DNA of 64,000 nt from Tribonema minus (Eukaryota > Sar > Xanthophyceae > Tribonematales > Tribonemataceae): the NCBI GenBank assembly GCA_017506865.1, contig JAFCMP010000016.1:310001-374000 (forward strand), read 5' to 3'. Made by a program: the position numbers and the translations under genes. The first letter of the stretch is position 1. Each line of letters starts with the position of its first letter. Below are positions 9,357 through 60,345 of the stretch, in pieces. Below the pieces are notes generated by a model, which did no database searches, had not been told where the DNA came from, and worked only from the letters and a program-made list of their open reading frames with translations.

Positions 9357-12300
9357 TTAGTCCCTGAACACATCCTTGACTGCATCCTTGACATTGTTGG
9401 CAGCGTTGCCGACCGCCTGCTTGACGTCGCCCGCAGCGTGCTTGACCTGCGAGTACACAGCAACAGAAGGCAGTTGCGGTGAGGTTCACCAGAACATGAT
9501 GGTGCAAAAATAATATAAACTATCACTACCAAAGGTACGATTGGTCAGGCGCAAGGTTGCAGTGCTGTATTGTGGATGTGTGTGGGTCGTCGAAGCACCG
9601 TTTGTAAAAGCACGAGGTACACCGCCTGAACAATCCATCAAGCGAATCAACAATGAAGCATAGTTGAAACACCTTGCCTGGTTCAAACAGCGTTGTCAAG
9701 GAACTGCTTCAATGTGGCACAAATAGCTTCAAACAGCATACTCCAGAGTTCAGCACACAGCACACCACTCTTGCAGACACAACGCACACAACTGCAAACT
9801 TCCGCTCACAGTAGTGTCGCCTCGCGTGAACCACATCCACCTTCACCTTCCAAAGCACCACGTCAGCTTCAACTTCAGCTGCGCACCTTGCTGCCAAGCA
9901 CACCAATGCAAAACGCCACTCACATTAGTCTTGCCTCGCATGGCCTATACACAACTTCAACTGTACTACTTCAACTTCACCCACGCACCTTGCTGCCAAG
10001 CCCCTCCGCCTTGTGCTCCGCCTTCTCCGCGCCCTCGCGTGTGTACTGCTCATGATATGTGCACTAACTTCATCTTCAACTACACAACTTCAACTTCAAC
10101 CGCGCACCTTGCTGCCGAGCCCCTCCGCCTTGTGCTCCGCCTTCTCCGCGCCCTCGCGCGTGTTCTGCCCCAGCTCGTTGATCCTATCCCTCGCCTCACT
10201 ACCAATGTCCTCCGCCTGATCACGCGCTCTGTCGCCAACATCACGCGCTGAGTCCACGGACTTGCGCGCGTAGTCCTTAGCCGTTTCGCCGAAGTCCTCT
10301 GCCTTGTGCTGAGCGTTGTGCGCGGCGTTGCCAGTGCTGCGCCCCAGGTCATTGGTGCGGTCGGTTGCCTCGTCGGAGATCTCACTGGCCTTGTCCTGCG
10401 CCTTGCGGGTGAGGTCTTGCGCGGACTCCTTGGCCTTGGCGCCGTAGTCACGCGCCTCGTCCGCGCCGCGCGATACGGCGTCCTGAAAATAAAACACAAA
10501 CACACGCTTACACATCAGTACTCACGCGTTGGGGGCGGCGTTTAAGTGGTTGTCGTCGGTGAGACACTTTCAGACTGTCACCCAACATGTAGTTGCCGTA
10601 CAGCAAGCTTCAACTTGAAGTTAGATGCCAATCATCTGGGCTCACGCCCTGAGCGAGAATTAATAAAAAGTACTCATGCGTCAACATAATACTTGGGTAA
10701 GTGTATCGCAGCAAGAGGTACATGAATGAGAATTAATAAAAAGTACATGTGTGACATTGCATGGCCTTGGCACCGTAGTCACGCGCCTTGTGTGACACAT
10801 CACCCACAGCATCAACATCACGATTGAACTTTTGAGCACAGCCTAATACATACCTTCACGTTCTCGTTGGCATGCTGTACCTTGTGCAACAAAACTCGCC
10901 CACAGCACCAGCTTCAATATCAGACTTCAGTATCAAACTTCTTAAAAACAACTAAAAAAAAAATACCTTGACATTCTCCTTGGCATGCTGCGCCTTGTGC
11001 GAGACGTCGCCCACCACATCATCGACCTTCTCGCCAGCCCTGCCGAGCGTGTTGCTGGTGGAGCGCTTCGTGTCGCTCGCCGCGTCCTGAGCGCTGTCAC
11101 CGACCTCCTCCGCCTTCTCCGCGACATCGCTCGTCAGGCTGTCCAGGTAGCTCGTCGCCTGGCGCGTGGCGCTCTTGGCGGAGTGCTTGGCGTCGCCCGC
11201 GACGTCACGCGCCGCGTCGCGAGCGTCACCGCTTGCGCTTTGAAGTTTGTCGCCGGCGCGCTCCGCGGAGGCCTGCACGTCGCCCGAGAGGTCGCTGAGG
11301 TAGTTGCTGGCGCTGCCGAGGCCCTTGTTAGCGGACTTCTGAGCGCTGTTTGCGGCGTCCTTGGCCTGGTGGCCGACGTCGCTGGCGGCGTTGGAGGCAT
11401 CGCGCGCTGCGCACAAAGGGGGGGGGGGGGGGGGGAATCAGGGTTGATGTAGGCTAGGTAGTAGTCTGTCAAGGGTGTATGGCACAGGCAGTTGTTGGGG
11501 TTGAAAATGTAGGCTAGGTAGTAGTCTGTCAAGGGTGTATGGCACAGGCAGGTGTTGGGGTTGAAATGGGTGGATAGGTAGGTAGAAAGTGGTGTCCTTG
11601 GCCTGGTGGACGGCGTCGCTGGCGGCGTTGGAGGCTTCCCGCGTTGCACACGTGGGGGATGGGGGGGGGTAAGAGTAGGTATCAGGGTTGACGGAGGCTG
11701 CGGTGGAGCGTGTATGACATGCTTCAAAGTAGGTGATGGGGGGGGGGGAGGTGTGAGGAAGAGGGAGGAGGGTAGGCGTCAGGGTTGAGGGAGGCTAAGG
11801 AAGTCAGCCAGGGGTGTATCAATAGGTGTTGAGGCTAACATAAGGTGGGTAGGTAGGTAGAATGATATGAAAACGCGGAGACGGCGTCCGCAAGTTGGGA
11901 GAGGGAGGGGGGGTGCCACAGAAGCGGCAGTGTTCAGGTCTTGATATGCGTGTTCATCACATGTGATCATCACATGGCATGAGTATGACATAACAGGGGT
12001 GTGTGATCTGTATTGCCAGTGCTGCTGGCACGCGCTACTGCCCGGTAGGGGGGACGGCGTGCGCTGAAGAAGCGGCAAGTGCTCAGGAGCAGTGGGAGTT
12101 GAAGTTCAGAAGTTGAAGTGCATCAGCAACAGACGAGGACATGTGCATGTTCTGCCTGGGCTTGTCATGTTTCAGTAATGAAAATTCTGCACAGCCATGA
12201 CATGAGCATGTGCAACTACGTGCACCCGCAATGCCTTCATCGGCAAGTCACTGAACCCTCAGGTCACCAGTAAACAAACATCGGAGCGACACCAAATGTA

Positions 12301-13518
12301 CAATTGCACTACATTTAACAGCGTCTCAGCTTAAAAGAGGAGATGAACAGCAAACTGTTCCTGCGGACCAGAAGATTTTAGAAGCGCACTGCACAATGAA
12401 GCATGTGAGATGAACGTTGTTGTTGAGCATGCTTGATGCTTTCCTACCACCACACCAATCACGTTTGCTAGTAAACACCTTTTTGTCCTGCTCATTCATA
12501 TAGTTGCACCTTGTTGTCCTGCTCATTCATATATTTGCGGTGCTGGAGATGCTGAGAGCTCCAGGTCAACCAACAAAACCTCAACTTGATTGCATATGTA
12601 CAGGGATTCAGCTGGATATAGAGGTAACAGAATGGTGTACTTTTTGTAGAAGTCACATGAATCTCATTTGGGACCAAGTGGCACCAGACGCAACTGGCTG
12701 GAAAGCGGAGAAGTATTGAAATCCTTATTGTGAAGTGGTGCAACATCTGTATCAGTAAGCCAGAGCATACCAAGCTCTGAGCCACCGGGGTACTTTTATT
12801 AATTTCGCTTCGCAAGGGGCGCAAAAAGCCCTCTCTTTGGATGTGCACTCAATGCAACATTCTTTCTCCGAGGAGAGACTCAAACGCAAACAGGCTTCCC
12901 CCTCTTCACACTACCACCAACACCCCACAACCAAACCCTACTTAGGGTTGCCCAGCCGTGAGGCACACTTGTCCCGTCTTGGAAAAGATTTATGCAGGCC
13001 TGGGTCGCCTTTGACAGCGCCCAGAACCGAGGACCATGCTGACACGTCTGAATCACGCCTCTAGGCAAAATGATCACCACCGGTGTACTTCGACATGACG
13101 CCGCCAGGCCCACAGTGGAAAAATTCATGAGCAAAACAGCAGCAAGTCACATGTACACGCAGTATTGAATTTTGCAAAGCACACATCAGTAAAGCCTGTA
13201 AAGCCTGTAAAGCCTGTGTGTTCTTCAACAGAAACCGTAGTTTCGTTCCGTGTGCTGCACCCTATTCTTTCGCTAGTTTAATTCTTTCGCCTATTTAACC
13301 TGCCTCAACAAATCCTTGGAAAGACGTGACTTGATGAGCAGACTCTCTCCGTACTCACCAGTGTTCTTGGCGTCCCGATCTATGCCGCTGCTCATGGAAA
13401 GCCGCGCCGGCCGGCTGAGTGTTGAGGGCTGCCGGTGGCCAAGGCTCACGAATCCGGAGGCAGAGTTCGCCAGCGCCAGCGCAGCGATAAAAACGGCAAC
13501 ATTCCGTGTGCACACCAT
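9357..13518 (-). CDS. Plastid-targeted LEA-like amphipathic-helix protein, four exons
   Basis: Exons on the minus strand: 13359-13518, 10967-11406, 10108-10482 and 9357-9446. The total of 1065 nt gives 354 residues and a stop; intron phases are 1, 0 and 0 and all junctions are GT-AG. Residues 1-25 (MVCTRNVAVFIAALALANSA, then SGFV) form a signal peptide plus plastid-type cleavage motif; the next 20 are Ser/Arg-rich and transit-like. The rest is Ala/Asp/Lys/Arg repeats in a loose 11-residue rhythm (for example SAKSATRQATS, DARDAARDVAG), typical of LEA group 3 or apolipoprotein-like proteins that form amphipathic helices on membranes or during desiccation. The last exon begins VKHAAGDVKQAV and ends VKDVFRD, a module shared with the gene at 36979-39157. 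Partial copies of exon edges sit in its introns. Function beyond the family resemblance is inferred. Confidence 0.75.
9880..10135 (-). repeat. Donor-side copies of an LEA exon end
   Basis: The end of exon 3 with its donor (GCGCACCTTGCTGCCGAGCC on the plus strand at about 10102) is repeated at about 9884 and 9984, the latter extending over CCCTCCGCCTTGTGCTCCGC. Each copy keeps the GLGSK|GT junction and lies 3' of the true exon on the minus strand. Copies are separated by (ACTTCAACTTCAAC)-like tracts. Confidence 0.65.
10531..10800 (+). repeat. Family R1 dispersed element, copy 2, plus a copied fragment of LEA exon 3
   Basis: 10531-10680 matches the element at 1078-1222 (GAGACACTTTCAGA, CATCATCTGGGC-like, CGCCCTGAGCGAGAATTAAT), here carrying an internal CTTCAACTTGAAG palindrome. 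Just after it, 10758-10790 repeats the exon-3 start region (GGCACCGTAGTCACGCGCC), an acceptor-side exon fragment. Confidence 0.55.
10851..10905 (-). repeat. Donor-side copy of LEA exon 2 end
   Basis: ACCTTCACGTTCTCGTTGGC at 10853 mirrors the true exon-2 end at 10965 (ACCTTGACATTCTCCTTGGC), both with the donor GT on the minus strand. The copy continues for about 40 bp with decreasing similarity. A matching acceptor-side copy of this exon's start lies at 11598-11650. Confidence 0.6.
11407..13358. other. First intron of the LEA-like gene with repeats
   Basis: The intron holds a poly-G run (11418-11434), a 65-bp tandem duplication at about 11446-11575 (GTAGGCTAGGTAGTAGTCTG), a decayed copy of the exon-2 start (11598-11650), further GC-rich degenerate copies near 11880 and 12040, and the long dispersed repeat at 12788-13068. 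No additional exon is supported. Confidence 0.5.
12788..13068 (-). repeat. Dispersed repeat family R2, copy 1
   Basis: This copy is about 90 percent similar by eye to 30185-30445 in the opposite orientation. Shared landmarks include GAGACTCAAACGCAAACAGG, GCCCAGCCGTGAGGCACACT and the AGCATGGTCCTC block. The 12788 end (GTACTTTTATTAATTTCGCT followed by GGGGCGCAAAAAGCCC) is related to the end of family R1 elements, so R1 and R2 may share a 3' terminus. Confidence 0.65.
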
Positions 13519-14145
13519 GGTTTCCTGATGTGATGAGCGTCAAATGCGTTGCGTATGTGATGAATGAGACAGCTCGGGAGGGATTTGATGGAACATGTTC
13601 CGAGAGGCTAGAAGCGACGCGCCCACTTCAAGTTCAACTTTCTCTAACGCAAAAAAAAGTTCTTTTGTGGCACCACCATTGTGGGAAAGGAACACATTCA
13701 TTGGGCATGGCAGCAAGCGTAGCAGAGAGGGCTCATCAATGTCCACAAGGAATGTGCAGCTCCCGCTGTCGGACGCCCCGAACGACGTTTTGCTGGGGGC
13801 ATCCTGCGCCGCCTGCTCGTTGCCTGCCAGCACGTTCGCCGCGCCGTCTTTGCACGCTGCGTGTGCAATTGCCACTGCCATGTGCCACAACATTGCTGCT
13901 GGTGCGAGGCCCAGAGACAGCAGGTGCCATAGCAAGTGCTGCGCGTGCAGCATATGGGACAGTTTGCAGTATACGCATCATGATGGCTTCCTGTGCGGAG
14001 TCTCAATGACGCAAGAAAAGCGCGAGCACTCCCTCACCAGCGGCATGTCCATGTTTGCCCGTGCATTGCTAAAATTACTCTCATCAGCGGCCACCAGCAC
14101 AACTTCAAGAAGTTCTGCCAATTTGAAGTTGAACGGCAGGCCCAC

Positions 14146-16740: not shown

Positions 16741-16751
16741 TCTAACAGACC

Positions 16752-16853: not shown

Positions 16854-16941
16854 ACTACATGAAGTTCACCCCCCCACACCCCCCCACACACACTCCATGA
16901 CTTACCACTCTTGCCGCCCTCTCCCCACTTTCTAGCAGGCA

Positions 16942-41033: not shown

Positions 41034-44000
41034 TCAGCTGTTGCGGCGACCGCCCTTGCCCTTCTTCTTGAGCTTTGGTGGCTCAATCTGCGCATACGCA
41101 AGAGGGCAGCAGGCAACACACGCACAGCGCACACCTATCAGCAAATGCAGAGGCAACAGAGCATAGGCAGTGACAACGCACCACGTTTCTAGCTTGTGGG
41201 CCATACTTGCATGCTTGACTGGGTGTTTGCACCAGACTTGGCAACCTGCTCTGCAGAACCTTCTGACAATCCAAGACAAAATATCATAAGGTGATATGCG
41301 TAATCAGGCCCTGTGGCGCTTGCACCCTACTCTTGATTTCAAGTTGAGGAGGGCAAAAAATGAAAATAATGCGTTGTTGGACCGCTTGGCGTCTTGAGAG
41401 CGTTGATCGATGCACACTACTCTTTGTTTTTCTCTCGACAAGGCCAAAATGAGAGCAAACGTTGTTGACCCACTTGGAGCCCTGAGGGCGTCACACTGAG
41501 ATTGATGCTGCGCATACGTTATCACAGGCGCGGATAGCTCAGCGAGAACTTCACCTACTGCGCACGGTCAGCTGGAAACTTCAACTCTGACAGCGCAAGC
41601 ACGTGTCGATAGAACCTCATCAGTGCTCAACCTCAACCATTTATTTGGTGACATGCACCACCACCCCCCGCCCTGCCCCAGCACTCTTCTCATACTCTCA
41701 AAGAACTTCAGCTACGACTTCAATCGACACCGCACCTGTGCCAGCTCTTTGTACGCCAGCCCCCCCAGCACCAGCGTCTCAACAGCCCAGAAGACATGTA
41801 CGCTCAAAGCACTTCAACTATGACTTCAATCGATGACGCACCTGCACCAGCTCATTGTACGCCAGCCCCCCAAGCACCACCCTTTCTCACACGGTACAAA
41901 AACTTCAACTGTGACTTCAACAGATGCCGCACCTGTGCCAGCTCATTGTACGCCAGGCCCCCCAGCACCAGCGTTTTGACGGCCCAGAAAACCGGCGGTT
42001 GCCCCACTGACTTGGCCTTGCCAAAAGCCGCCGCTGCCATCGCAGCGTTGATGACGTATGTGATCTGCAGCGGCGCAGGCGTGCATGACTCGTGAGTACG
42101 ACTTGTGAGTGTGACTCCAAAGTGTGCCTTGAGAGTGTGACTTGAGGCTGCAGGGCCGCATTGACCACACATGGGATCTGCAGCGGCGCAATGCGTAACT
42201 TGTGAGTGTGACTCATGACTCGTGAGTGTGACTTCAGAGTGCAGGGCCGCATAGACCACACGTGGGATCTGCAGCGGCGCAATGCGTCACTTGTGAGTGT
42301 GACTCATGACTCGTGAGTGTGACTTGAGAGTGCAGGGCCGCGTAGACCACGCAGTGGCGCAGTGTGTCACTTGTGAACACAACTCGAAAGCGTGACTTGA
42401 GAGTCCGGCCACGGCCGGCGATCGGGCATGCTGCACTCACAAGCATACCAGTTTGATTGCTTGAAGTAATACCTGAAACAAGATGCTAACTCAAACATCA
42501 ATTGTGTCTGAAGTTATGTACTTCTTCTCCGCAGTGCAGCTGAAGGAAGCTACGGGTCTCAAGCAGCGTGCAACGGCGCAGACAATCACATGCACACGCA
42601 TTGACCCCGCTGCTTGTCTCAAAAATCATTGGGAGCAACATGCCGCCACTCATCCAAACACTGCAAATCTTCAACCTGAGTTCTTACCCAAGCACAGCAA
42701 AACTCACGGCAGTGCTCAACTTAATGAACTTGAACTCACCATCAAGCCCCTCTGCAGGAACGACCGCAGGTCGTACGGCAGCTCTGTCAGCGGGAACCCC
42801 GGATACACCACGAATCCGCACAGTACGCAGAGCACTGCCAGAACCGTGTGCCCCGACTGCAGGTACGAGTTGGGCAGGCCCACAAACGGCTGGCCCTCCC
42901 CCAGTGCCGCAGACATGTAGTCGTAGCCCTGGAGAAAAGGGGGAAGGAGGGGGAAGCGGGGGGGGGGGGGGTAAATTGCACTGCTTGCAAATGGCGGCAA
43001 GATTTGGTGGGAGGGGGGGGGGGGAGCACGGGAGGGGGGGGGGGGGGGGGGGCATTTCTCTGCCCGAAACAGCAGCAAGTAAACAGCCTCCTGAAGCCAC
43101 TACATGGCTGTTTTGGCCTCACAGGCAGACAGAGGTGCTGGCTTACTGCTGTGCTTGTGCACATGATAGTGGCAGCAGCGCCCAAGTTTAACGTGACTCG
43201 GTGCTCGTCAGCAGTGGTGTAGCTTGCTAAACGACAACCAACGAGAGTTCAAGCCTGCCATTGCACCGGCAACGCCATTGCAATCCCATTCGGCCAGCAT
43301 AGCACACCCACATACCCTTGAAATGCAGGCAGTATAGTGTCTGGAGCTTGCCCGCGTACGTATTACAGACCTGTCACCATGCAGTGTTGCCATTGGTTTT
43401 GCTGGAGGAAGCTGACGCTGCTGTGTGAGAGTCTCCGGGTGAACTGGCACACCCATGCAGGTGCATACATCATACAAACAAACTTCAAACATACGCCTGT
43501 TAACTGCGCCTGAAAGCCAAGGCCTCGAGGCACGTCGCTCGGCAATTGTCGCTGGGCAATTTGTGGCCTGAAAAAACCAACGCTACAGAGCTCAAATCCA
43601 ACTTCAATTGTATTCAACGTCAACACCACATTATAACAGTCTCAACAAACGCTGCTTCACCTGAGGACACCGGAAGAGTTCCCTCAGCGACAACATCTGC
43701 TAATGTCATCTTCAATATTCAAATTCAAGATCAGCAGCGCTCACCCCTGGTCGAACAGGGGTCATGTCACACCTACGGCATGACACCATCCTCCTGTTCA
43801 ACTTCAATATAAATATCTTCAACTTCAACATTTCAAATTCAATGTGAAGATCGGCAGCGCTCACCTCCTGGTTAAACAGGCTCATGTCACTGTCAGCTTC
43901 TGGATCCAACTCCAGCAGCTTGGTGAAGCTCTTGGTGTCGCCGCGGCCAATCTTGGACTTTGCGGGCTGTGCCGACACCTGGCATGATTTGATTGGGGGA

Positions 44001-47000
44001 GCGTTGATGAATGAATGAATGAATGAAATGATGAATGAAGGTTGGTGTCGCGGCGGCCAAACTTGGATTTGGCGGGCTGTGCCGACACCTGGCATAATTT
44101 AATTGGGGGCGCACTCCCCACAGTGTGCCCACATGTACTCATGATGTTCATGAAAGGTTCCCATCAGAGTCAAAAAGTAACAGAGCAGGGTTCTCATGCA
44201 AGTTCTTCAACTTGAAATTGGCATGCAAATGTTGGGCAGTAACCCTAACGCTTGCCCTAAATTGCGCACATGAGTCACATGGAACATCCTTGTCACCTAG
44301 AGCTCTGCAATCTTTTGATTCGTTTTCATTCGTCAACAGGTCACATCATCAAAGTCATGAGCTCAACATGGGGGTTTCGTTGTGTACACCAAGGGTGATG
44401 AGTGTGACGAGGGAGCTGCGCAAACAACACACGCATATGGATGCTGGGCCCATCAACAACCACCAAATAGCGCAGCTTTGCCTGCCCATTTTTGGGACAT
44501 GCGAACTTCAAGGCAGCCTAGAGCAAGCGGTCTCATCCTCTTGGCTGGCTCTTGTATGCCTGGCAGTGGCACAGTGCCATTCGGCTGTCAGTTGAAGGCA
44601 GCGAAAAGCGTCACCATTCACGCATACCCATACCAGCCTGCACCTATTAGTCCATGTGTTTGTGCTGCTGCCGCCTATGTAGCCGAGAGCAACAGCAGCT
44701 CGCCCCTGGCAGCTGAGCATCATCAAATACAGCAGAGGTTCCGACCGAAGTTTCGGTTCGATTGTCAAAACCGAAAAAAATATTTTGATTGATAATCGAT
44801 TATTTTCGGTAATTATCGATCATTATCGATAACCGAACGATATCGATAATCAATCGATAATCGCCCCTTCCACCTGCTCAGTGGTGCTGTTCTGTGTGGC
44901 ATGTCTCTTCGGTGTAATTATCGGACGACCGATGACGTTCTTCCTCGACAAAAAACCTAACCCTAGTGCTAACCCTACATCTGGGTCCGCTCGCAACCCT
45001 CGTCCTAGTTGCATTAAGTAGGATTAGGAGACCCTAGTTGCATTAAGTAGGGTTATGGCAAGTACGGTTAGGGTAAGTAGGGCTAGAAAAGGAAGGTTTT
45101 TGTGTTAGTTCTCGGAGTGCGGTTCAACGCGAGGTGGTGCTCGCGGAAACCAAGTGCTCAACGCACCCCGCTACCAATTGCTGCAGCATATGCTGCAGCA
45201 GCAGTGCGTCTGCAGCAGCGGCTGCAGCAGCAGTGCATCTGCAGCAGCAGAGCAGTGCACCTGCTGCAGCACCTACAGCTACACGGCTCTGATGCTGCTT
45301 CAGCACGGCAATATCACCATCGCCGCTCTTTTGAGCTGCAGCCTAGGCTAGCTCGTTGATGTAGCTTTGTGGTCTGGACACTGTCTAGACAACTTGTAGT
45401 GTGTTTCAGAGATGATATAGTAGCTTACACAAGCAGTTTGCAATCATTCGGGACTGGCCAGCTTACATATGCACCGAAAATGCAGCAATATCGAACGATA
45501 ATCGATATCGTTCGATAATCGATAACCGTTCGATATTATCGAATAACCGAACTGAGATTCGATCGATAATCGGTTTGGTTCGGTTTCGGCATTATCGAGC
45601 TCATTTCAGTTCGGTCGGAACCTCTGAAACACAGGCATGATTCCACGCACCTGTGCCTGCCACAAAGCAGCCAATACTATCTACATCTACAACACCCCCC
45701 TGCTTTGGCCATGCACCACCAATATACGCATGCGTGACACAAACCAACCACCGTTATGGTGCGCTCTCAATTGTGCCATCTACCTCTACAACACCCACCT
45801 CGGCCTGGCGCTTGGCAATCTTCTTGCCAAGCTCTTTGAGATCCGGCAACGGCATGACACCCTCGGTTGTCGGTTTCAGATCCGCCTTGAAGTCAATGCG
45901 TGGCGCCGCCGTTGCGCTGCTGTCCTTTGTGTCTTCACCGTCTTTGCTCTCCGACTCCACAGGCAGCTCGATGTCCTGCGCTTGCACAGCACAAGCAAGT
46001 CCGTCGGTGAATGCCTCATGTACACTGGCGTTGCAGACTGGTTTGGGTGACTCTGACTCTGACTCTGGCCGTCCTTGCTCTCCGACTCCACGGGCAGCTC
46101 AATGTCCTGAGTATACTGCATCAAAATGCCTTGTGTGAATTGGCATTGCAGAATGGTTTGAGTGACTCTGACTGCGACTCTGACCGTCCTTGCTCTCCGA
46201 TTCCACGGGCAGCTCAATGTCCTGAGTATGCAAAGCGCAAGCAACTGCATCAACATGCCTTATGTAAATTGGCATTGCAGAATGGTTTGAGTGACTCTGA
46301 CTGCGACTCTGACCGTCCTTGCTCTCCGACTCCATGGGCAGCTCAATGTCCTGGGCATGCAAAGCACCAGCAACTGCATCAATGAATGCGCATGTAAACT
46401 GTCGTTGCAGATTTTGAGTGACTGTGAATCTGACTCTAATTGTCCTTGCTCTCCGACTCACGAGCAGCTTCATGTCCTGGGCATGCACAGCACGAACAAG
46501 TCCGTCAGTGAATGTCACACAAAAAACTGGCAACAAGAGTGAGTCTGGCTCTGAGTCATGTCCGCAATGGCATGTGCAATGCGTCAGCGTGCCGCACATT
46601 GCCGTTGACTGGCGCCGCAGACTCATTTGGGTGAGTCTAACTCTGAGGCATATCCGTGATGCGTGCACACGCTACGCGAGCGCAGCGTGGGCAGGTAGGC
46701 ATGAACATCAACATGCCATGAGATCATATGCAGCACATCAATTTGCAACACTGGCACGCAAATGTTTTGGTGGCTATGAGCAAGTGTTTCGGCTCAATGA
46801 CAACCGAATGAGTACTTCTTCATCTCCACCTCCCCTGCACCCTCCCTGCATGTAGGCTTAGCCAAGTACTGGTGGTTTTAAATTCAAAGACTACTTCAAA
46901 GACTACTTTGAAGTTCAATAAATGTGTGTGCATGATGGGAAAAAACTCACCAGGTCAAATGAGTACTTCTTGCTCTTGACCTCCCCCGCACCCTCCCTGC

Positions 47001-49308
47001 CAACTGCTGACCCCATCTCAGAATCCAGCAGCGATCCCACAGGCGCCACCTTACCCTAAGAGTAGGGTTACAGCCAGCACAGCAGATTTAGCGTGGCAAT
47101 CAGTTACACCCATGAATGTGACGCCATTAGGTATTCCATGTATACATACATACTGTCCCCATGTCAGCGTCCAGCAGCGATCCCACAGGCGCCACCTTAC
47201 CCTAAGGTTAGGGTTGCAGTCAGCACAGCAGATTTAGTGTGGCATCAAGCATTGCAATGTCCTGTGATTGCCATGCTGGCTACACCCATGGATCGCCATT
47301 AGGTATTCTACACATACATACATACATACTGTCCCAGTCTCAGCAAACAACAGCGCTCCCACATGCGCCACCTTACCCTGAGGTTAGGGTTACAGCGCAT
47401 GGCATCAAGAATTGCGGGGATTCTGCGGTTGCAGTGCTGGCTACACCCATGGGGATGGCCATTAGGTACTGTACATATACATACATATATACTGTCCCCA
47501 TCTCAGCGTCCAGGCAGCAATCCCGCAGGCGCCGCCTAATCCATACGTGAGGGCTACAGCCAGCAGTGCCTCCAGGCCTTGATACATGCCCATGCTTGCT
47601 GTGGGATATATATCAAGGGCGTCACAGGACTGGTTTGCGATCATTCCCCACTGCCAGCTACTTCTTGTGCTTAGTCTGTTTTGCTGAAGTCTCTAGAGTC
47701 AGCCCGGGGTATCGTAAATTTGCGTGTAGGTACCTGCAAGAGGCCAACCAGGTCACTCAAATTTATGTTCGCCTCATTGTTTAGCACCACAGAGCATCGT
47801 GAGAGCGCCATCAGGCTCATGGCATGCTCTACGTGAAAGTACTGATTGAGTCTGTAGTGTCAACCCAAATATTGTTAGCTTGGGGTACCTGCAAAAGGTC
47901 AATCACGTTTGCGTTGACCTCACTTCCCAGCACTACCTGATTGAGACTGTAGGTTCAGCACGAGTATAGGCAGCTTGGATGTACCTGCAGGAGCTCGATG
48001 AGATTTGCGTTGGCCTCATTTTCGATCTCTGCCAGGCTCGCACTCCTGCTCAGCTCCGATGGCAGCGGCGGCAGCTTTATGTACTCCACACCATCTTCTG
48101 GTTCAAATGGCACCTGTTGGAGTTTCAACATCAGGGCAGATATTGGCGGCATTGCTTTGTGGGTGCCTTCAAACACCGTTGTGTAACGATGTGGTGATTT
48201 GCGACAAAAGTGATGTGATGGCGGCACAAGCTGCTCTGTGTGCGAACTGCATGGCACGGAGAATTGCAGCCAATATGTCATCCGTTATCTGCCTTGCAGC
48301 ACCGCCCCTGATGACCAAAGTTTGCACTGGGAAGTGCTCAGTGGGTAATGAGACGTGTGGTGATCAAGTGCCGTGAGGCAACTTCAAGTGTAAAGTTTTG
48401 AAATAGTTGCCTAATATGTGAAACCAGAGGCCATGGTAATTGGTTAACCAGCTATGTTTTGGACATAGTCAAAATTTTGAATTGTTGGCTGCCGCACCTA
48501 GGTATGTAATATCAGGTACTGTAATGTTGCAGGCTGTTGTACAACAGCTGAGGTTACGATGTAGGCAGCGGGTCGCGCGTGCGACAGCGTGTTGAAAAGC
48601 AGCCAGAGCCACATCGTCTTCCTGATGGTAGGAGTAAATTCATATGGCTTTCAGAGTCGTACGACAAGCAGTTTCAGTGCTTCAATCCAGCTGCCTCTTG
48701 GCGATGATTGAGCCAGCAATGCACCTGCGAGAAGTGACGTCTTGCTGTCTTCAAATCCTTGCACAAAAGGGCGCTTATCGCAAGCATGGCTGCACTGATG
48801 ATGATACACTTCATGAGGAACAGCAACTGAGTTCAGACATGTTGCACAAAGCTGACATGTAAAATTACGCCAGAGCTGCCATCTATTGCTCTCTGTGGGC
48901 ATGTGCATATGCACGACTCAAGAGTAGTAAAACCTGGCATGCTCGGCAATCACGGCGTCTATGAACTTGTCAGATCTCAATGAGCCTGCCTCAGGCGACG
49001 ACAGGTATGATCATGTTCGCGGTGCATGCACAGCTAGACTTCAACGAGTGTGTGTACCCGGTACACACAGTCGAACAAGGTCTCTAGACGAGAAAATTCA
49101 ATGCACTCACGTCCTCTTTTGTCGTCCTTTTCCGCACGCGCTTCTTGGCCGCCAGCGCCACGCCGTCAGCGCTGCGCCTGCATCCTCCGCTCACATTCCC
49201 CCATCGCCTGCCTTGTTTTGTCGCTGCTGCACCGCTGCTGGGAACCTGAAATGCCGTCGCGCATGATGCAACGCCACAGGCCAAAGCCAGCGCCCGCAAG
49301 GGCGTCAT
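41034..49308 (-). CDS. Plastid-targeted membrane protein of unknown function, eight exons
   Basis: Minus-strand exons 49111-49308, 47985-48113, 46951-47055, 45799-45975, 43865-43978, 42740-42928, 41933-42064 and 41034-41087 total 1098 nt: 365 residues and a stop. All seven introns are phase 0 and GT-AG. Residues 1-20 (MTPLRALALACGVASCATAF) are a signal peptide with cleavage before Phe, followed by a Ser/Arg-rich transit-like region. The middle is acidic and soluble (KDGEDTKDSS, LKELGKKIAKRQAE). Three hydrophobic segments lie near 268-286 (HTVLAVLCVLCGFVVYPGF), 304-318 (MITYVINAAMAAAAF) and 327-346 (PPVFWAVKTLVLGGLAYNEL); the C-terminus is very basic (KLKKKGKGGRR). I expect a thylakoid or inner-envelope protein; I do not recognise the family. 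The gene is transcribed divergently from the gene at 50487. Nearly every exon is flanked by decayed copies of its own edge. Confidence 0.8.
41730..41932 (-). repeat. Donor-side copies of exon 7 end of the plastid membrane protein gene
   Basis: The exon end with donor (CGCACCTGTGCCAGCTCATT on the plus strand at 41929) recurs at about 41733 and 41838, each continuing over GTACGCCAGCCCCCCAGCAC. The copies lie in the last intron and keep the donor GT. Confidence 0.7.
42147..42390 (-). repeat. Acceptor-side copies of exon 7 start, three tandem units
   Basis: The true acceptor at 42065 (minus: GCCGCTGCAG|ATCACATACG) is echoed by GCCGCTGCAG|ATCCCATGTG near 42178 and GCCGCTGCAG|ATCCCACGTG near 42268, plus a decayed third near 42350. 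Translated, the exon start I-T-Y-V-I-N-A-A is matched by I-P-C-V-V-N-A-A and I-P-R-V-V-Y-A-A. Period is about 85-90 bp, with GTGAGTGTGACTCATGACTC filler. Confidence 0.75.
42950..43056. repeat. Poly-G runs in the intron
   Basis: Runs of G at about 42959-42971, 43012-43023 and 43036-43053 form, on the minus strand, C-rich polypyrimidine DNA shortly upstream of the exon acceptor at 42929. Such runs recur before several acceptors in this window. Confidence 0.6.
43735..44100 (-). repeat. Copies of both edges of exon 5
   Basis: The acceptor-side copy at 44040-44100 repeats GCCAG|GTGTCGGCACAGCC and the following codons (V-S-A-Q-P-A-K-S-K-F-G-R-R-D-T-N against V-S-A-Q-P-A-K-S-K-I-G-R-G-D-T-K). The donor-side copy at 43733-43765 resembles the exon end with GGTGAGCGCTGC. 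Between real exon and acceptor copy lies a GAATGAATGAAT microsatellite (44008-44025). Confidence 0.7.
44733..45626. mobile_element. 894-bp hAT-type MITE in an intron
   Basis: Terminal inverted repeats are 17 bp and perfect: CAGAGGTTCCGACCGAA at 44733-44749 and its complement at 45610-45626. Flanking 8-bp sequences AAATACAG (44725-44732) and AAACACAG (45627-45634) match at 7 of 8, the hAT target-duplication length. Subterminal regions are dense in ATCGATAATCG-type palindromes on both sides. The centre holds CCCTAA/AGGGTT telomere-like tracts and a CTGCAG-rich stretch (45178-45270). No transposase, so non-autonomous. Insertion is in the intron between exons 4 and 5 of the plastid membrane protein gene. 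Confidence 0.85.
45950..46510 (-). repeat. Tandem array of acceptor plus start of exon 4, period about 123 bp
   Basis: The true exon begins at 45975 (minus: CAG|GACATCGAGCTGCC). Four upstream copies near 46106, 46223, 46350 and 46475 repeat CAG|GACATTGAGCTGCC and the codons D-I-E-L-P-V-E-S-E-S-K-D-G, then diverge into CAGAGTCxCAGTCAGAGTCA. Three keep an intact acceptor; the most distal has D-M-K-L-L. Confidence 0.8.
47020..47560 (-). repeat. Tandem array of acceptor plus start of exon 3, period about 165 bp
   Basis: The exon start at 47055 (CTTAG|GGTAAGGTGGCGCC on the minus strand) is repeated near 47210, 47385 and, decayed, 47540, each with CCTGTGGGATCGCTGCTGGA-like continuation. The DNA just before each acceptor is a telomere-like AACCCTAACCTTAG/TCAG. 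The donor edge of the same exon is copied at 46805-46850 (GAGTACTTCTTCATCTCCAC). Confidence 0.75.
47720..47984 (-). repeat. Donor-side copies of exon 2 end
   Basis: The true end N-A-N-L-I-E-L-L-Q|GTACAT at 47985 is echoed at about 47888 (N-A-N-V-I-D-L-L-Q|GTACCC) and 47731 (E-A-N-I-N-L-S-D, then G-L-L-Q|GTACCT). Both keep reading frame and donor. Confidence 0.75.
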
Positions 49309-50486: not shown

Positions 50487-53400
50487 ATGTCGGAAGAGGG
50501 CAGGCCGCTCACCATCAAGGAGAGGATGGCGCTGCTGGAGCAGGAGAAGAAGAAGGCGGCGGCGGTGGTGGTGTCGGAGTCGCCGAGCGATGTGCCCACC
50601 ACTGTTAAGGGCATGGTGGCTGGAGCTAAGGTGCGTATGTATGTTGGGCTGGTGTGCGCGTTTTGAAAATCACCTGTGGCCTGAGCTGTGTAACATGTTG
50701 TGCACTATGTATGTGCCGAGTATGTATCAACAGTACACATACAGAACACGTGTATGCACGAAGTTGCGGCGGTGGTGTGTGTGATGAGATACACAGATAG
50801 TGTCTAACTGATGCGAGCACTGAAGGCCTGCACTACATGAAGTTACGAACTGGACTACACCTGTACTCTACTGTACCGAAGTGGACTACACCTGTACTCT
50901 ACTGTACCGGTGCATACAACACAGTGGGGCGCCATTTGTGCAGCAGCTCACGGCAGCGCTCTCGCAACCAGTAAATCGAACACACATACCTTTATGGCAT
51001 ATGTAGTACATCTCTACATGCTTGAGCAGATGCGTCAGTATATGATTGGGTCATTCAACCAGCCGCAACAAGGGCTGTGAGCGGCTTCTGTTGGCGTTGG
51101 TGATGCTCAGCGTTGACAAGATACCTACATTCCGCTACGATGCTGATGCTCAGTTAATAATTGTGTACCTGCTACATGGGCTTGCATTTACTCGCACGCA
51201 TACCATCGCACGAGCAAACAATTGCTGTTTGCCGCTGAGATGCGTATCGTCTCTGTGAAGCAGGGGTTGTCTGTATCAGTTGCTTGACTTGCAGTCGTCA
51301 GTCAACGTCAGCTGAGTGTGGTGAGTTGAGCTGAGAAGGATAGTGGGGGGGTCTACGCTCACGTGGATACTTTAAAAGTATGGTTTGGAGATGAACAGTT
51401 GCAGCGGTCACTTGGCAGTCATTTGCAGCAAAGGATTACTAACCAAGGTGTATTCCCAGCCTTGTTCGCTTTGAGGGCACAGCACAAGCCATGGTCGCCT
51501 GTGCAGCACCACATTGTGCACTCAGCTTTGCCTCCAGCCAACTGCATGTACTTGAAGTACTTTGAAGTATGTAGGGAACTGGTCATGAATGCTTCTGCGG
51601 ATTTGGCCTGAACATACTAGCAGCACTATCAATGAATACTTCAAGTTCTTTGAAGTATGTATGTATTTATGTATGTGTGTACGAATGTGCGCTCAGCTTT
51701 CATGAATGCTTTCATGCCGCTACTAGCTCAAGAATCTGCCATGCAGGTGTGTATGGCCTGATGTGCATCGCACAAAATTACATATATACACGCATACACA
51801 TATATGTATACATTCAAAAGTCTCTGTCGCTGTTACAGTACTGTTATGACACATGCGTCGCATGATGCACAGCCAAACTATGGCGTAGCTCATGAAGGTG
51901 TGCCTCACAAATTGTGAAGCCTTCAAAAACCACTCTCAACCGTTGATTTACATCACAGCTCACACCCAATGGTTGAGCATCTTCTGCCTGTGTGCATGTG
52001 CTGCCACAACCCCCTCGCTTAGGGTTCCGACTAATGTTCCAAAACTCACTCTGTGTACAAACTTCAACTGCTGCATGCACCCACCGCTGCTGCTGCGCAG
52101 AAAGTGGATTCTCCTGTGAGGAGCCCTACCCCCGGGCGCCCGTTCTGGCAAAAGGTATGTATGTATGCCCTATGACTTGTACTTCAAGAGCAGTACGCAA
52201 TTCGTGTCGATACTCTCGGCTTCACTTCGCAAACTTCAAGTTTTTTCTTGGATCGCACACAGGAACCTATTCCGGAGTACCTGCCAACAACTGAGTGAGG
52301 TCTTGAGCTTCCTGAGGCGTCCGCTGAGTGTCCTGAGGTGACAGCTGTGGGTGAACCAGGCATGATATCAGCACTCCAGAACACGTGCCTGTGAAGTCTA
52401 AATTATCATCCTCCTGTGGGACATGAGCGAAGAAGCCCATCCAGTCACAATCAGAGTCGTCCGCCGTACCTAGATCCGACTCAAGCCTTCAAGATCGCCT
52501 CGCAGAGGGTGCTACGGACTTCTGGGACGCAGGTTCAAAGTAGAGCTTTCAACTGTTGCTGACCACTTTGTGCTGCCTGCTTTGAACGATGCCCTTTCAA
52601 ACAAGAAATAATCGTTCCGCCTTTGGTATGACGCCTTTCCGGCTGCCTCTTTCGGTGCCAGAGCACGCGCATACTTCCATTCAAAGTGTACGCACTGATG
52701 CTGTTTGTGGCCCTGGGTGGGCATGATCATACTACTGTGCCCTTGTTGCACTTCAACTGTGCCCTTGCACTTCAAAGGTCGCGTTACAGCTCTCCCATAC
52801 CATTCATTCGTGGCCAATGACTGCAGCAGCGGCGACCGTGGTTACTGGCGGAAGGCACTTGCGGCTAACCGCTCCTTGTTACCTATGTAGACCTCTACAA
52901 TCTTTTGATTCATTTTCATTCATTATTTGGAGTGCCTCTGTTATTTTTTGCTTGCTGGCGTGCAGCCCGCTAAGAGCAAAGCGTCTGGTGACTCTCCATC
53001 ACCGGTCTCCAGTTCCGGCGCCAAGTCATGGGTCAAGCCCACGGCCTCTGCCGGCAGCAGCGACAGCCCCAAGCCAACGAGGTACGCTTCACTAGCTTAG
53101 CAAGACCCTAAACCTGACGCCAAGTAGCCCCAAGCCAATGAGGTACTTCAAGTTGAAGTATATGTCACCAGCCTTCCCCAACTTCAACCCCTCCAAAGCG
53201 TAAACCGCAATGCTGTTACGTACATGCCCACCCAAACTCCCGACAGAAACCTCGAACCACAGTGCGCTTGAAGTTGCGTTGTTGGTATGGTCGTTGTCGT
53301 ATGACTGGGGCACCATTGTTTAATTGCGCAGCTGGCCTGCTTGTGAGCATGTAGTCATGCAGATGGCCAGCACTGCGCTTTCTTGCTGTTGCTGCTGCTG

Positions 53401-56400: not shown

Positions 56401-59400
56401 TTGAAGTGTTGACTGGAAGGTGAAGGCAAAGTGCTGCTAGAAGCTCGGCGTTTCACATCATGATGTTGCACTGAACTTCAAGTGTGACTTGCCTACTTCT
56501 GCGATGCAGGCGAGCGATGCTGGAGGCTCAGGCGTCGGCGTCATCGGAGGATCTCGACGCGGATGGGGAGAAGGAAAAGAACATCAGGAAACTCAAGATG
56601 ACGGGGGTGAGTGAGGGCTTTTGAACTTTAACATGAACTTCATATCAGCACACTCAACACGGCCGCAAAGTGTGAAACAGAAAGTGTGATGGAGGTCGGG
56701 TTTGTGCGTTTGCAGTAGTGTGCGTTTGCTGTGCGGCTCATCACTTGAACTTCGTTCGGGCCAACAACGTGTCCGTGGCCTAACCTAGTCTTCTCGCTGG
56801 TTTGCAACAAAACGGACGCTGAAGATGGTCACAGAAGTGGACACAGCACCTTAAAGCGCAAGTGCAACACAGGTCATGCATCTGCCATGGACTCGCGTTG
56901 GGGTTAGGTTGGGTCTAACTGCAGCGCACGTCATCACTTTAGCTTTGTGCGGGCAAACAAAACGTCCGGGCTGTGCTGTACCCTGGTGTATGACGAGCTG
57001 CACCGTAATCTGACGATATGTACGGTATGCATCGAATGTAGGGCATGTTTGCAGTTTTATTGCACTGTAGTCCGATCGTGTAAGCTGTGCTGCGCGCCGC
57101 ACCACAGTGTGATGGTGTGTAATTTAGGTGGGGTATTCACGCATTCGCCATTGACACACACACAGTGCCTGTTTGTCCAAGTTTAATGTAGCGGCCGTCA
57201 CCTAACCCTAACCCTAATCATTTCTGACTTCATAATATGAAGTTCATAATGTAACATATTATTGTAACACCGGACTCTGAGTCGACAGCAATGCTTAGAG
57301 ACGGCACACACCCCTGATCGTCACTGTTTGTTGCAGGTGCTCAGCATGGCTAGTTGGTGTTGAAGACAAAGTTGAAGTTAAAGAATCGTTTTTTATACAC
57401 TACGCTCACTGGACAAATGCACCACACTCACAGTTAGCAATCACCCGTTGCTCGTCGACGCACGCTCTCTGTGCAGATGCCCATGATTCCCATCGGCGTC
57501 ATGACCCCTGGCCAGCTCGCGGCCATCAAAGTGAGCATGAATTCATGAATTCATGCAACGTTGAATGAGTTTCATCAACACCGCTAGCGGAAGCATATAG
57601 TCATCACCACCTTTACCATGGTGGTGCCCACCACAACTCTCGTGTTGCTCGCACAATAGTGGGATGAGGATCATAATTGCACCAATTTGCTTCCTCAGCA
57701 TCAAGTGTAGAACACCGTACGCTTCTGTTCATGCCGTGACCTGAGTGTCTCTTGTACTTCAAAGTAGATCAAAATTGGTGGTCAGGCTGACTACTAGTAG
57801 CTGATTTGGCACCATCAGCAGAGCTGCAATACTGCCCCCAGGCAGCATTCAACAACGCCTGTGTACCCAGCAAACCAAGACTTGCTGTTAGCACACGCCG
57901 GGCGTGTCGTTCGTGTTGCATTGCTCAGCACATATCTGAGGCCAAAAGCGGGGATCAAATTACTACTACAGAGAAGACGCCAAGCCTGCAGTCGAGGCTC
58001 AGCCGCCTGCCTCCGATTATCAAGATCCGCTTGGCGCATTTGCATTAGAAAGTGACGGTGCGACGACACATGTACACTGCCACGCCTTGCGGCTGATAAA
58101 CATGAGACACCAATCACCTGTCGTCAAGCGAGGCCAAACGGGGGGTCCAAGTTACTGCAGGGGGGACGTTGAGCTGCGGTGGAGGCTCATCCGCCTCCCT
58201 CTGACTACTCACATTCACTTGGCGCATGTGCATTACAAAGTGACAGTGCGACGACACATGTTCATTGCCTCATCTCGCGGCTGAAACAATGTGAAAAACA
58301 AATCACCTGTGGTCAATGCGAGGCCGAAAGCGGGGGCAACTTACTACTGGGGTGGCGCCTGTGGTGGAGGCTCAGCAGCTTGAAGTTCTCTCCGACTGCA
58401 TCGAGCACATGCACTGTGTGGGGCACTCGTTTCAAGCAGCGATAACGCCGCGCCGCATGTGCGTCTTTTCACTTCGCGGCTGACACATGAATCATGATGC
58501 CAAAATGACAAAAAAAAAGTGATCAGCCTCTGTACGCCCCCCTGGTTGCCCCTCAATTGGAAACACTGGCTGGAACATGAGTTCAGGTCAGCTCAGACCC
58601 CTCCCCCCCCCCCCCCACAGGCCACCTTTCGATCACAAGCACTGACATTGCCACGCCACATCTCCCCCCCCCCCTTCTCCATCTCCCATCGCGCCATCCT
58701 CAGGCCAAGAAGCAGGAAGAGGAGCAGAGGGCCAACTCCCCCCCTCCCGCAGAGGACACCCCTGCCCCCGCCGCCCCCGAAGCTGAAGCGCCTGCGGCCG
58801 GCAGCATTGCGATTGCGCACGCCAACCTTGCGCGCCCAACGCAGGGGCGCAAGCGGCCACCGGCCATGGCCAAGCGCGCCTTCGCGTCGCCCGTTCCGCT
58901 GCCTAGTGCCGCAGTTGAGGCCAGGTACGTCAGTGCTTTCATGATACTGCGCGTAAGCGCCGTGTGCGTGGCATATTCACTGCAGCAAGGTCGCTGGCGT
59001 GGCAAGCGCGCCTTCGCGTCGCCCGTGCCGCTGCCCACTGCCGCAACCGAGGCCAGGTGCGTTGTTGCTCTTATGATGATGCTTGTACAGGTTACCCTAG
59101 CCCTCGGCAAACAGCCGTAATCCCCCCTGTATCTCGCACTTGAGCAGGGCAGCGCGCGTTCGCATCCCCCGTGCCGCTTCCCACCGCTGCAGTCGAGGCC
59201 AGGTACTTCAATTCTTTCATGATGGCGATTGTACAGGTTGCCCTAACCCTCAGCAAACAGCCGTAATGCCTATATCCGCTTGACCTGTGGCCAAGCGCGC
59301 CTTCGCGTAGCCCGTGCCGCTGCCCACTGCCGCAGCTGACGCCAGGTGCGCCAGTGCTCTCGTAGTCCTGCTGTAAGGGTTACTCGTGTTGACTCTAGAA

Positions 59401-60345
59401 TTCGCCAGGCCTATGGCCAAGCGCGCATTCGCATCGCCCGTGCCGCTGCCCGCTGGCGCAACCGACGGCAGGTGCGTCTGCGCTCTTATGATGATGCTTG
59501 TACAGGTTACTCTGATCCGCGGCAAACGGCCGTAATCCCTCCTGTATCTGGCACTTTAAGTTCCGAATTCGCCAGGCCTAGGGCCAGGCGCGCATTTGCG
59601 TCGCCTGAGCCATTCCCTGCCCACTGCCGAAGCCGACGCCAGGCACTTGAGCGCTTCTTCGGTATTTGCGGAAGGTCTAGGGTCAGGGTTAGGGTTAGGG
59701 CTGACACGATTTTGGGCAGGGCCCCCTTGCTGCGTTGGTGCAACGCTAACACTAACCCTAGCCCTGACTTTAGCCCTGTGAGTGCTCCCATAATTCTGCT
59801 CGCAATGCGCCAGGTACTACTGGCAGCTGGGGCCCACCCGCCGCACTTCTACGCTTCCTGTCCCTGGCACTTGCACTCAGAAACTGCATGGCATATACGT
59901 CCACATTTTATTTCTTGTGTGTTGCCGCCTGTGCCGCTGCCCGCTGCCGCAACCGCCACCCAACAATAGATAGACAGCGCTCTGCACATTGCAGCTCAAC
60001 TTAAAGTTGAAGCCTGCTGGCGGGCCGTGAAGGTTGCTGTGCCCCTCACTTTTTGCCGCAACATGGCGCCACTTTGTCTGTGCCTCTTACTCTTTGCCGC
60101 AACATGGCGCCACTTCCGCCACTTTTGCCTGTCACCGCAGCGTGCCGGCAGAAGCGACCGCCGCCGCCGACAGCGCCGCCGCGCCCGCCGCCGACAGCGA
60201 GCCGAGCGACGCTACCGCTGCTGCGGCTGCAGCTGCGGCCGTCATCAATGCAGCGGTGGACGCCGCCACCAACGAAGCCAGCACCAAGGCTGACGTGGAG
60301 GCTGTTGCAGGCGCTGAGAGTGGCGACGGTGGTGGCGATGCATAG
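50487..60345 (+). CDS. Pro/Ala/Ser-rich modular protein of unknown function, eight exons
   Basis: Exons 50487-50630, 52966-53081, 53659-53913, 55147-55302, 56510-56606, 57477-57530, 58704-58924 and 60141-60345 total 1248 nt: 415 residues and a stop, with phases consistent at every junction (0, 2, 2, 2, 0, 0, 2). The N-terminus MSEEGRPLTIKERMALLEQE is a charged helix. Short helical motifs recur: KERMALLEQ, SLAARMAMFNS (exon 3), SLAARMASFNS (exon 4) and RRAMLEAQ (exon 5), separated by Pro/Ser-rich linkers including DVPPPPPPTP. Then KLKMTG-MPMIPIGVMTPG, AKKQEEEQ, KRAFASPVPLP and an acidic Ala-rich tail ending SGDGGGDA. No enzyme domain or targeting peptide. The design suggests a cytoskeletal or SH3-type scaffold; this is inference. 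Four exons are followed by tandem copies of their donor edges. Confidence 0.7.
50631..52965. other. First intron of the Pro/Ala-rich gene
   Basis: 2.3 kb with no supported exon. It contains a 30-bp duplicated GGACTACACCTGTACTCTAC unit at 50852-50910, and an ACTTCAAGTTCTTTGAAGT inverted motif at 51640. Confidence 0.5.
53119..53160 (+). repeat. Donor-side copy of exon 2 end with a palindrome
   Basis: AGCCCCAAGCCAATGAG|GTACTT at about 53126 copies the exon-2 end AGCCCCAAGCCAACGAG|GTACGC (53081). ACTTCAAGTTGAAGT follows directly at 53144. Confidence 0.65.
53835..54445 (+). repeat. Tandem copies of exon 3 end plus donor, five units
   Basis: The true exon end (CAACAGCGAGCCATCTGCGA to GCGCAAAG|GTGATTTGCT) is followed by copies ending near 54058, 54208, 54332 and 54443, each retaining AACAGC or AATAACGAGCC, CGCTAGCAGCG-like DNA and an AG|GTG donor. 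Intervening DNA (ATTxAATTCATGAATGAAA) is also repeated. Similarity decays with distance. Confidence 0.8.
55220..55745 (+). repeat. Tandem copies of exon 4 end plus donor, four units
   Basis: The exon end GCTGAGCAGTGCTGCACGCG to ATGACGCTGAAGCAGAG|GTGAGC recurs with ends near 55447, 55578 and 55741. Each copy also has an upstream GACAGCAG or GACTGCAG that could act as an acceptor, but the resulting exon would be out of frame with the host gene. Confidence 0.8.
56320..56360 (+). repeat. Acceptor-side copy of exon 5 start
   Basis: GGGCGATGCGGGAGGCTCAG at 56342 copies the true start at 56510 (GCGAGCGATGCTGGAGGCTCAG), 170 bp upstream of it. Confidence 0.5.
57930..58500 (+). repeat. Three tandem units of about 185 bp
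   Basis: Units share GAGGCCxAAxxCGGGGG, a TTACTACTG-like block, GGAGGCTCAxCCGCCT, CTTGGCGCATxTGCATTA, AAAGTGACxGTGCGACGACA and CAATCACCTGTxGTCAA. The array lies immediately upstream of exon 7 in the intron. Its GAGGCCAAAA part may derive from the exon-7 start (AGGCCAAGAAGC), but this is not certain. Confidence 0.65.
58860..59645 (+). repeat. Tandem copies of exon 7 end plus donor, at least six units
   Basis: The exon end (CCAAGCGCGCCTTCGCGTCG, CCGTTCCGCTGCC, then GAGGCCAG|GTACGT at 58924) is followed by copies with donors near 59056, 59202, 59345, 59471 and 59643, and a fragment at 59928-59955. Most keep K-R-A-F-A-S-P-V-P-L-P and the xxCCAG|GT donor. Spacing is 125-175 bp. Confidence 0.85.

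What the first reader, a model, noticed from the sequence alone, without database searches (positions are those of the whole stretch)
9357..60345. Exon-edge tandem arrays: introns filled with decayed copies of the adjoining splice site and exon end
In at least five unrelated genes (LEA-like at 9357, DUF2306, ERF4-like, plastid membrane protein, Pro/Ala-rich) the intron next to an exon carries one to six tandem copies of that exon's own edge. Copies before the exon contain acceptor plus exon start; copies after it contain exon end plus donor. Only the edge is copied, never the full exon, and similarity usually falls with distance. I know of tandem-duplication models of intron gain and of introner elements, but a systematic edge-copying pattern of this kind is not something I can name. 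It may reflect a recurrent local duplication process centred on splice junctions, intron growth, or selection for decoy or alternative splice sites.
Basis: partly seen in the sequence, partly recalled or inferred. Interest (0 to 1): 0.88.

Follow-up and report, generated by a model that had tools for sequence, protein, structure and literature searches.

The report
Ordinary tandem duplications straddling splice junctions
In this yellow-green alga the introns keep gaining short head-to-tail duplications, and when one happens to straddle the end of an exon it leaves a slowly decaying decoy copy of that exon's edge and splice site in the intron; the copies are real, but the duplication process does not appear to aim at splice junctions.

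Summary
The core observation is real. In the window (Tribonema minus, a xanthophyte) and five other 50-kb stretches of the same genome, exon-edge 40-mers recur in the adjacent intron at 35 of 376 edges, against 2 of 220 exon-middle 40-mers, 0 of 376 in shuffled introns and 0 of 376 in introns of other genes. The missing control changes the meaning: intron-interior 40-mers recur in their own intron as often, 282 of 3,023 (ratio 1.0, 0.69-1.42). Most intron sequence covered by copies has no exonic partner. Decoy spacings are not in frame (22/23/33 modulo 3); tandem pairs inside exons are (182/7/21). Best reading: small tandem duplications arise throughout genes; selection removes them from exons unless in frame; those crossing a junction survive because the original splice site can still be used. 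'Similarity falls with distance' is not supported (nearest copy best in 10 of 21). Against this reading: junction-spanning copies are about 1.5-2 times commoner than my uniform neutral simulations predict, and young pairs are split, 12 intron-only and 9 touching exons. Gene models are mostly my own; no RNA data.

The parts
41034..49308 (-).
   Evidence: exact spliced mapping of P0001; P0001
41736..41777 (-). 42-nt exon of the deposited model that is a decayed copy of the end of exon 42064..41933 (TLVLGGLAYKELAQ after TLVLGGLAYNELAQ); the three homologues read (two brown-algal, one Chrysoparadoxa) have one copy
41679..41872 (-). two copies of exon end plus donor of exon 42064..41933, GT kept in both
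42147..42332 (-). two copies of acceptor (plus short exon start) of exon 42064..41933
43706..43770 (-). copy of exon end plus donor of exon 43978..43865
44042..44112 (-). copy of acceptor side and start of exon 43978..43865, 90% identical
46183..46514 (-). three copies of acceptor plus start of exon 45975..45799; AG kept in all three when the junction of P0001 is used
46807..46849 (-). copy of the end of exon 47055..46951 (donor not covered)
47153..47562 (-). three copies of acceptor plus start of exon 47055..46951; AG kept in all three when the junction of P0001 is used
47842..47922 (-). copy of exon end plus donor of exon 48113..47985
9864..10047 (-). two copies of exon end plus donor of the LEA-like exon 10482..10108
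10735..10903 (-). two copies of exon end plus donor of the LEA-like exon 11406..10967 (the farther one weak, score 35)
11591..11699 (-). copy of acceptor plus start of the LEA-like exon 11406..10967; splice AG changed to AA
18023..18562 (+). tandem array reaching into the DUF2306 exon 18542-18778; three acceptor copies at 18116-18332 recognised, AG kept
   Evidence: PF10067; only its own place in the genome
53848..54432 (+). array of exon end plus donor (predicted exon 53659-53913), unit about 144; three donor copies with GT kept
   Evidence: only its own place in the genome
55211..55771 (+). array at predicted exon 55147-55262, unit about 145; the predicted donor is doubtful
58862..59643 (+). 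array at the end of predicted exon 58704-59056, unit about 132-146; three donor copies with GT kept
   Evidence: only its own place in the genome
11447..11581 (.). young tandem duplication inside an intron, no exon involved (unit 60)
12476..12538 (.). young tandem duplication inside an intron, no exon involved (unit 31)
50846..50909 (.). young tandem duplication (unit 31, 96%) in a predicted intron
   Evidence: gene model
60037..60115 (.). young tandem duplication inside a predicted intron (unit 41)
36312..36423 (.). young tandem duplication outside predicted genes (unit 53, 97%)

Best explanation
Small tandem duplications (units typically 90-200 bp) arise anywhere in these genes, most likely as by-products of break repair. 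Inside an intron they are neutral and lengthen it. Inside an exon they are removed unless in frame. When the duplicated tract straddles a junction, the original splice site next to the rest of the exon can still be used, so the protein is unchanged and the extra copy becomes a decoy of exon edge plus splice site in the intron. Decoys then decay neutrally. Because the exon-side original is constrained, only one of the two copies changes there, so these pairs stay recognisable longer. Shown: local tandem copies far above chance; equal frequency at exon edges and in intron interiors; a frame filter in exons only; no dispersal of the four arrays tested. Inferred: the break-repair origin, use of the exon-proximal site, neutrality of decoys.
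For: Edges 35/376 and intron interiors 282/3,023 are repeated equally, exon middles 2/220. Copies with no exonic partner cover 0.09-0.16 of intron from 0 to 1,200 bp from an exon, exon-partner copies at most 0.07 in any bin. Unit modulo 3: intron pairs 98/100/105, exon-exon pairs 182/7/21, decoys 22/23/33. Exon parts of decoys are 0.86-0.88 identical, intron parts 0.80-0.84, and GT/AG is kept in 69 of 80; about 9% change in one copy predicts roughly 0.83 for the dinucleotide (my arithmetic). The fraction of arrays touching an edge (49 of 116 = 0.42) lies within the 95% range of three of the four neutral turnover variants and just below that of the fourth (0.43-0.74). Four arrays searched genome-wide match only their own place.
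Against: Junction coverage relative to intron interior is 0.94 (0.76-1.14), 0.96-1.14 for other exon sets and 1.30 if copy-like exons are not removed, while neutral simulations give 0.35-0.70 pooled (one search used a slightly different interior measure), with 95% upper bounds of 0.50-0.72 for sets of about 190 introns; single small sets reached 0.90 and single 50-intron runs 0.96. So junction-spanning copies are about 1.5-2 times too common. In one search the edge fraction of 0.42 was reached by 0.0045 and 0.0225 of simulated sets. The BLAST-based count also showed excess, 42 of 65 arrays against 31 or 21 expected. Young near-complete pairs do not separate the readings: 12 intron-only, 9 touching a predicted exon, 4 intergenic, and with the P0001 exons one of the 12 (47007-47244) also touches an exon. 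Copies rise with local GC in introns (0.09 to 0.20) and exons are GC-richer (0.69 against 0.55); this may account for the excess but was not modelled. Start-codon edges have no copies (25 edges), so coding edges in general do not behave like junctions.
Confidence: 0.76

Rival explanations
1. A duplication process that prefers exon boundaries (for example through the GC step, chromatin or co-transcriptional structures at junctions) makes edge copies about twice as often as copies elsewhere in introns.
For: Residual 1.5-2 fold excess over neutral simulation; the 8 BLAST clusters listed in the P0001 gene all overlap an exon (8 of 8; the finer scan adds one intron-only pair at 45004-45055); copy coverage is higher 100-200 bp from exons than beyond 400 bp; start edges lack copies; about half of the young genic pairs touch an exon.
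Confidence: 0.15
2. Decoy splice sites are kept by selection as alternative splice sites or mini-exons.
For: GT/AG of decoys kept in 69 of 80 against 244 of 349 for the same dinucleotides elsewhere in the alignments, Fisher p 0.003; one decayed copy is an exon in the deposited model.
Against: The control dinucleotides may change in both copies, the junction in one only, which alone predicts about 0.83 (my arithmetic); spacing modulo 3 is 22/23/33, so use would mostly break the frame; the support of the deposited model is unknown.
Confidence: 0.06
3. Introner-like mobile elements, or intron gain by duplication of an exonic AGGT segment.
For: Both put splice sites into repeated sequence (recalled).
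Against: Four arrays searched genome-wide match only their own place; intron start against next exon start and intron end against previous exon end: 0 of 188 introns each.
Confidence: 0.02
4. Assembly or gene-model artefact.
For: Most gene models are my own ab initio ones; 34 of 295 strong exons were themselves mostly copies.
Against: The decoys are decayed, with many substitutions, which assembly errors would not give; P0001 maps exactly; 16 of 30 test exons from the other blocks match Pfam families, 14 of them over the cut-off.
Confidence: 0.01

Closest known systems
Tandem duplication crossing an intron-exon boundary in the potato RdRp gene (PMC4974935; abstract and outline seen)
   Same: The duplicated tract crosses an intron-exon boundary and copies the 3' splice site.
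   Different: There a new intron was gained; here the copy appears to be absorbed into an existing intron, and such copies are common.
Introns gained by tandem duplication in Drosophila (PMC2891723; passages seen)
   Same: Duplication of a stretch with splice signals changes gene structure.
   Different: That model duplicates exonic proto-splice sites (AG/GY); the matching signature was absent here in 188 introns.
Small tandem duplications from break repair (PMC8355091, passages seen; Vaughn and Bennetzen 2014 seen only as an entry in its reference list)
   Same: Adjacent duplications that need no repeat or homology.
   Different: Introduced there as short insertions under 100 bp and studied when fresh; here many are longer and decayed. 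Breakpoint chemistry was not resolved here.
Introner elements (recalled; titles in the listing)
   Same: Fill introns with related sequence.
   Different: Dispersed family; here each of the four tested arrays is local.
Tandem exon duplication and mutually exclusive exons (recalled)
   Same: Tandem copies of coding sequence in introns.
   Different: Whole exons with both splice sites; the decoys counted here carry an edge with one.

Membership tests
Small tandem segmental duplication | copies head to tail at short spacing, above chance | tested here: met
   740 segments against 1 in shuffles at threshold 18; coverage-weighted median unit of intron-only pairs 132, quartiles 87-198
Small tandem segmental duplication | local, not dispersed | tested here: met
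   only own place, 4 of 4 arrays searched; the search skips very common words
Small tandem segmental duplication | position independent within tolerated sequence | tested here: inconclusive
   ratio 1.0; leave a 1.5-2 fold junction excess
Small tandem segmental duplication | repair-type breakpoints (short or no microhomology) | not tested
   one search lists 25 young pairs with match length minus unit, but breakpoints were not analysed
Introner elements | same sequence in introns of many unrelated genes | tested here: not met
   for the four arrays searched
Intron gain by AGGT tandem duplication | intron start resembles next exon start and intron end resembles previous exon end | tested here: not met
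   0 of 188 and 0 of 188
Tandem exon duplication | whole exon copied with both splice sites | tested here: inconclusive
   34 of 295 predicted strong exons are mostly copy sequence and were not resolved; the queries span 60 bases either side of a junction and cannot judge whole exons
Functional alternative splice sites | use in transcripts | not testable with these tools
   no RNA data; the frame test speaks against regular use

The most novel reading that the evidence does not exclude
Tandem duplication in this lineage is truly biased towards exon-intron boundaries by about twofold, so that junctions act as mild duplication hot spots; the genome would then hold a natural library of decoy splice sites of graded age, and the spliceosome must reject decoys that at birth were identical to the true site over about a hundred bases.
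Probability: 0.15. Interest if true: 0.72.

Novelty: new member of a known kind. Interest (0 to 1): 0.4.

Why it matters
About one junction in nine of those examined (43 of 376) has a nearby decoy that, on the duplication reading, was once an exact copy of the real splice site and its surroundings. That is a natural experiment on how splice sites are chosen when local sequence cannot decide, and a simple route by which introns grow. It also warns annotators: decayed edge copies look like exons to a gene finder, and one is an exon in a deposited model.

Tried and rejected
First pass with self-BLAST seemed to show a peak at exon edges (0.15-0.16 against 0.03-0.13 in the intron) and 42 of 65 arrays touching edges. 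I replaced it because it missed young duplications with short units that TRF lists (11447, 12476, 36312). A first junction-to-interior ratio of 1.48 (1.18-1.76, against intron-partner interior coverage) was inflated by decoys that my gene finder had called as exons. Against any-copy interior coverage the ratio is 1.30 (1.04-1.54) with all strong exons, 0.94 (0.76-1.14) after removing 34 of 295, and 0.83 (0.64-1.03) after removing 43 of 295. The first gene finder merged whole blocks into single genes and was replaced by a two-strand version.

A periodicity near nucleosome length was considered; the spacing spectrum is broad, so I do not claim it. Comparison with relatives was not possible: the genome has no relatives in this collection. 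A homologue search with the Pro/Ala-rich predicted protein found none. Paper searches (listings seen) listed no paper whose title or abstract start concerns tandem copies in Tribonema introns; the library lacks most subscription journals, and passages of one Ectocarpus paper (PMC12477816) mention Tribonema once, on another matter. Coverage by copies without exonic partner is about 1.7-15 fold higher in introns than between genes in five blocks, and zero between genes in the sixth; turnover between genes may explain it, untested.
Full report
What was examined. The window is C16:310001-374000 of a 158-Mb genome in 554 contigs. A homologue search with the predicted plastid membrane protein returned P0001, a hypothetical protein of Tribonema minus, and P0001 maps exactly, residue for residue, on nine exons of the window. 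I therefore take the genome as T. minus, a xanthophyte. Exons come from my own two-strand gene finder (44 genes, 469 introns), except for the P0001 gene. As a check, 16 of 30 longest-exon translations from the other blocks match Pfam families at E up to 0.001, 14 of them over the family's cut-off.

Local alignment finds copies of exon edges with splice sites in the adjacent introns of the LEA-like gene at 9372-13414, the DUF2306 gene (PF10067, E 1.1e-8), the P0001 gene and the Pro/Ala-rich region. An ungapped scan for repeats at spacing 20-400 finds 740 segments at threshold 18 across the six blocks and 1 in Markov-3 shuffles. For 376 junctions, 80 decoys were counted; 78 of them, at 43 junctions, could be placed to the base.

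The missing control. Intron-interior 40-mers match elsewhere in their own intron, within 600 bp, in 282 of 3,023 cases, 9.3%, the same as exon edges (ratio 1.0, 0.69-1.42 by gene bootstrap; in the window alone 12 of 58 edges against 88 of 637 interiors; low-complexity interior hits were left out). Coverage by copies without any exonic partner is 0.117 at 0-50 bp from an exon, 0.154-0.159 at 100-200 bp, 0.120 at 400-600 bp and 0.108 at 800-1,200 bp; a last bin of 2 kb reads 0.456. Coverage by exon-partner copies is 0.03-0.07 within 200 bp. So edges are repeated like any piece of intron, and exon interiors are the exception. Young, nearly complete pairs do not decide it: 12 intron-only, 4 intergenic and 9 touching a predicted exon, of 25; with the P0001 exons one of the 12, at 47007-47244, also touches an exon.

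Signs of selection and decay. Pairs inside exons have units that are multiples of three in 182 of 210, intron pairs are even (98/100/105), and decoy spacing is even too (22/23/33, p 0.24). Decoys are therefore not, as a rule, translated. In decoys the exon part is 0.859 (donor) and 0.876 (acceptor) identical, the intron part 0.842 and 0.804; GT is kept in 42 of 50 and AG in 27 of 30, including three donor losses at 55262 where my predicted site is doubtful. The same dinucleotides elsewhere in the alignments are kept in 244 of 349 (Fisher p 0.003). I read this as decay of one copy against decay of two: an intron identity of about 0.82 implies about 9% change per copy, so about 0.83 for a dinucleotide whose original cannot change. 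Similarity does not fall with distance (29 concordant, 24 discordant pairs; nearest best in 10 of 21).

What does not fit. Under uniform placement an intron-interior duplication covers interior sequence twice and a junction once, so a neutral simulation predicts a junction-to-interior ratio near one half, and the observed ratio near one is an excess. Junction coverage over any-copy interior coverage is 0.94 (0.76-1.14) after removal of 34 of 295 copy-like exons, 1.30 without removal and 0.83 with a stricter removal; 0.96-1.14 for other exon sets. Pooled simulated values are 0.47-0.63 (with a slightly different interior measure), 0.55-0.70, 0.43-0.48 and 0.35-0.45 with deletions, insertions or short starting introns. 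In short introns (120-400 bp) the real value, 0.42, fits; in longer ones it is 0.96 and 1.35. The array-level measure, 49 of 116 touching an edge, fits three of the four variants, lies just below the range of the fourth, and is rarely reached. Possible causes are the rise of copy density with GC in introns (0.09 at 0.40-0.50 to 0.20 at 0.70-0.80; the small bin below 0.40 reads 0.13; no clear trend between genes below 0.70), dilution of long introns by other insertions, wrong exons, or a real edge bias. Start edges showed no copies (25 edges) and stop edges 0.061 (19 edges), against 0.142 and 0.103 at 230 donors and 230 acceptors.

Mechanism. A tract duplicated across an acceptor gives intron end plus exon start twice; using the last acceptor restores the old message. 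Across a donor, using the first donor does so. The decoy is then free to decay. In the deposited model one such decoy has become a 42-nt exon, 41777..41736, adding 14 residues that the three homologues I read (two brown-algal, one Chrysoparadoxa) lack; whether RNA supports this is unknown. That such duplications come from break repair is inference from published work (PMC8355091, passages seen), not shown here.

Comparison and verdict. A duplication crossing an intron-exon boundary is known from potato (PMC4974935, abstract seen). Introner-like dispersal was tested and not met for four arrays, and the exonic AGGT signature was absent in 188 introns.

Noticed in passing
all six blocks: Tandem copies without exonic partner cover more of introns than of intergenic sequence in 6 of 6 blocks (for example 0.212 against 0.079 in the window).
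   Followed up: partly
window 41034-49308: All eight introns of the P0001 gene model lie between codons (all nine exon lengths are multiples of three).
   Followed up: no
window 1395-8375, minus: Long predicted coding stretch next to the LEA-like gene; a piece of it has a weak reverse-transcriptase match (PF00078, E 0.0024, under its cut-off). Probably a retroelement fused to the LEA-like gene by my gene finder.
   Followed up: partly
window 61519-61985: Predicted exons read like a retrotransposon integrase fragment to me (recalled); Pfam gave no match for the piece sent.
   Followed up: partly
window 32610-34436 and 36979-39157: Two further genes like the LEA-like one at 9372-13414, with many Lys/Asp/Ala repeats; Pfam gives only weak matches such as YtxH and apolipoprotein. 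One starts with a signal-like sequence followed by SAFVAP, which resembles a secondary-plastid targeting motif (motif recalled).
   Followed up: partly
C5:200001-250000 (L008-L012) and C10:200001-250000 (L013-L017): Strong regional variation: C5 is as rich in edge copies as the window (14 of 68 edges; interior 115 of 612), C10 has almost none (0 of 90; 8 of 508).
   Followed up: partly
introns, all blocks: Copy density in introns rises with local GC from about 0.09 to 0.20.
   Followed up: partly
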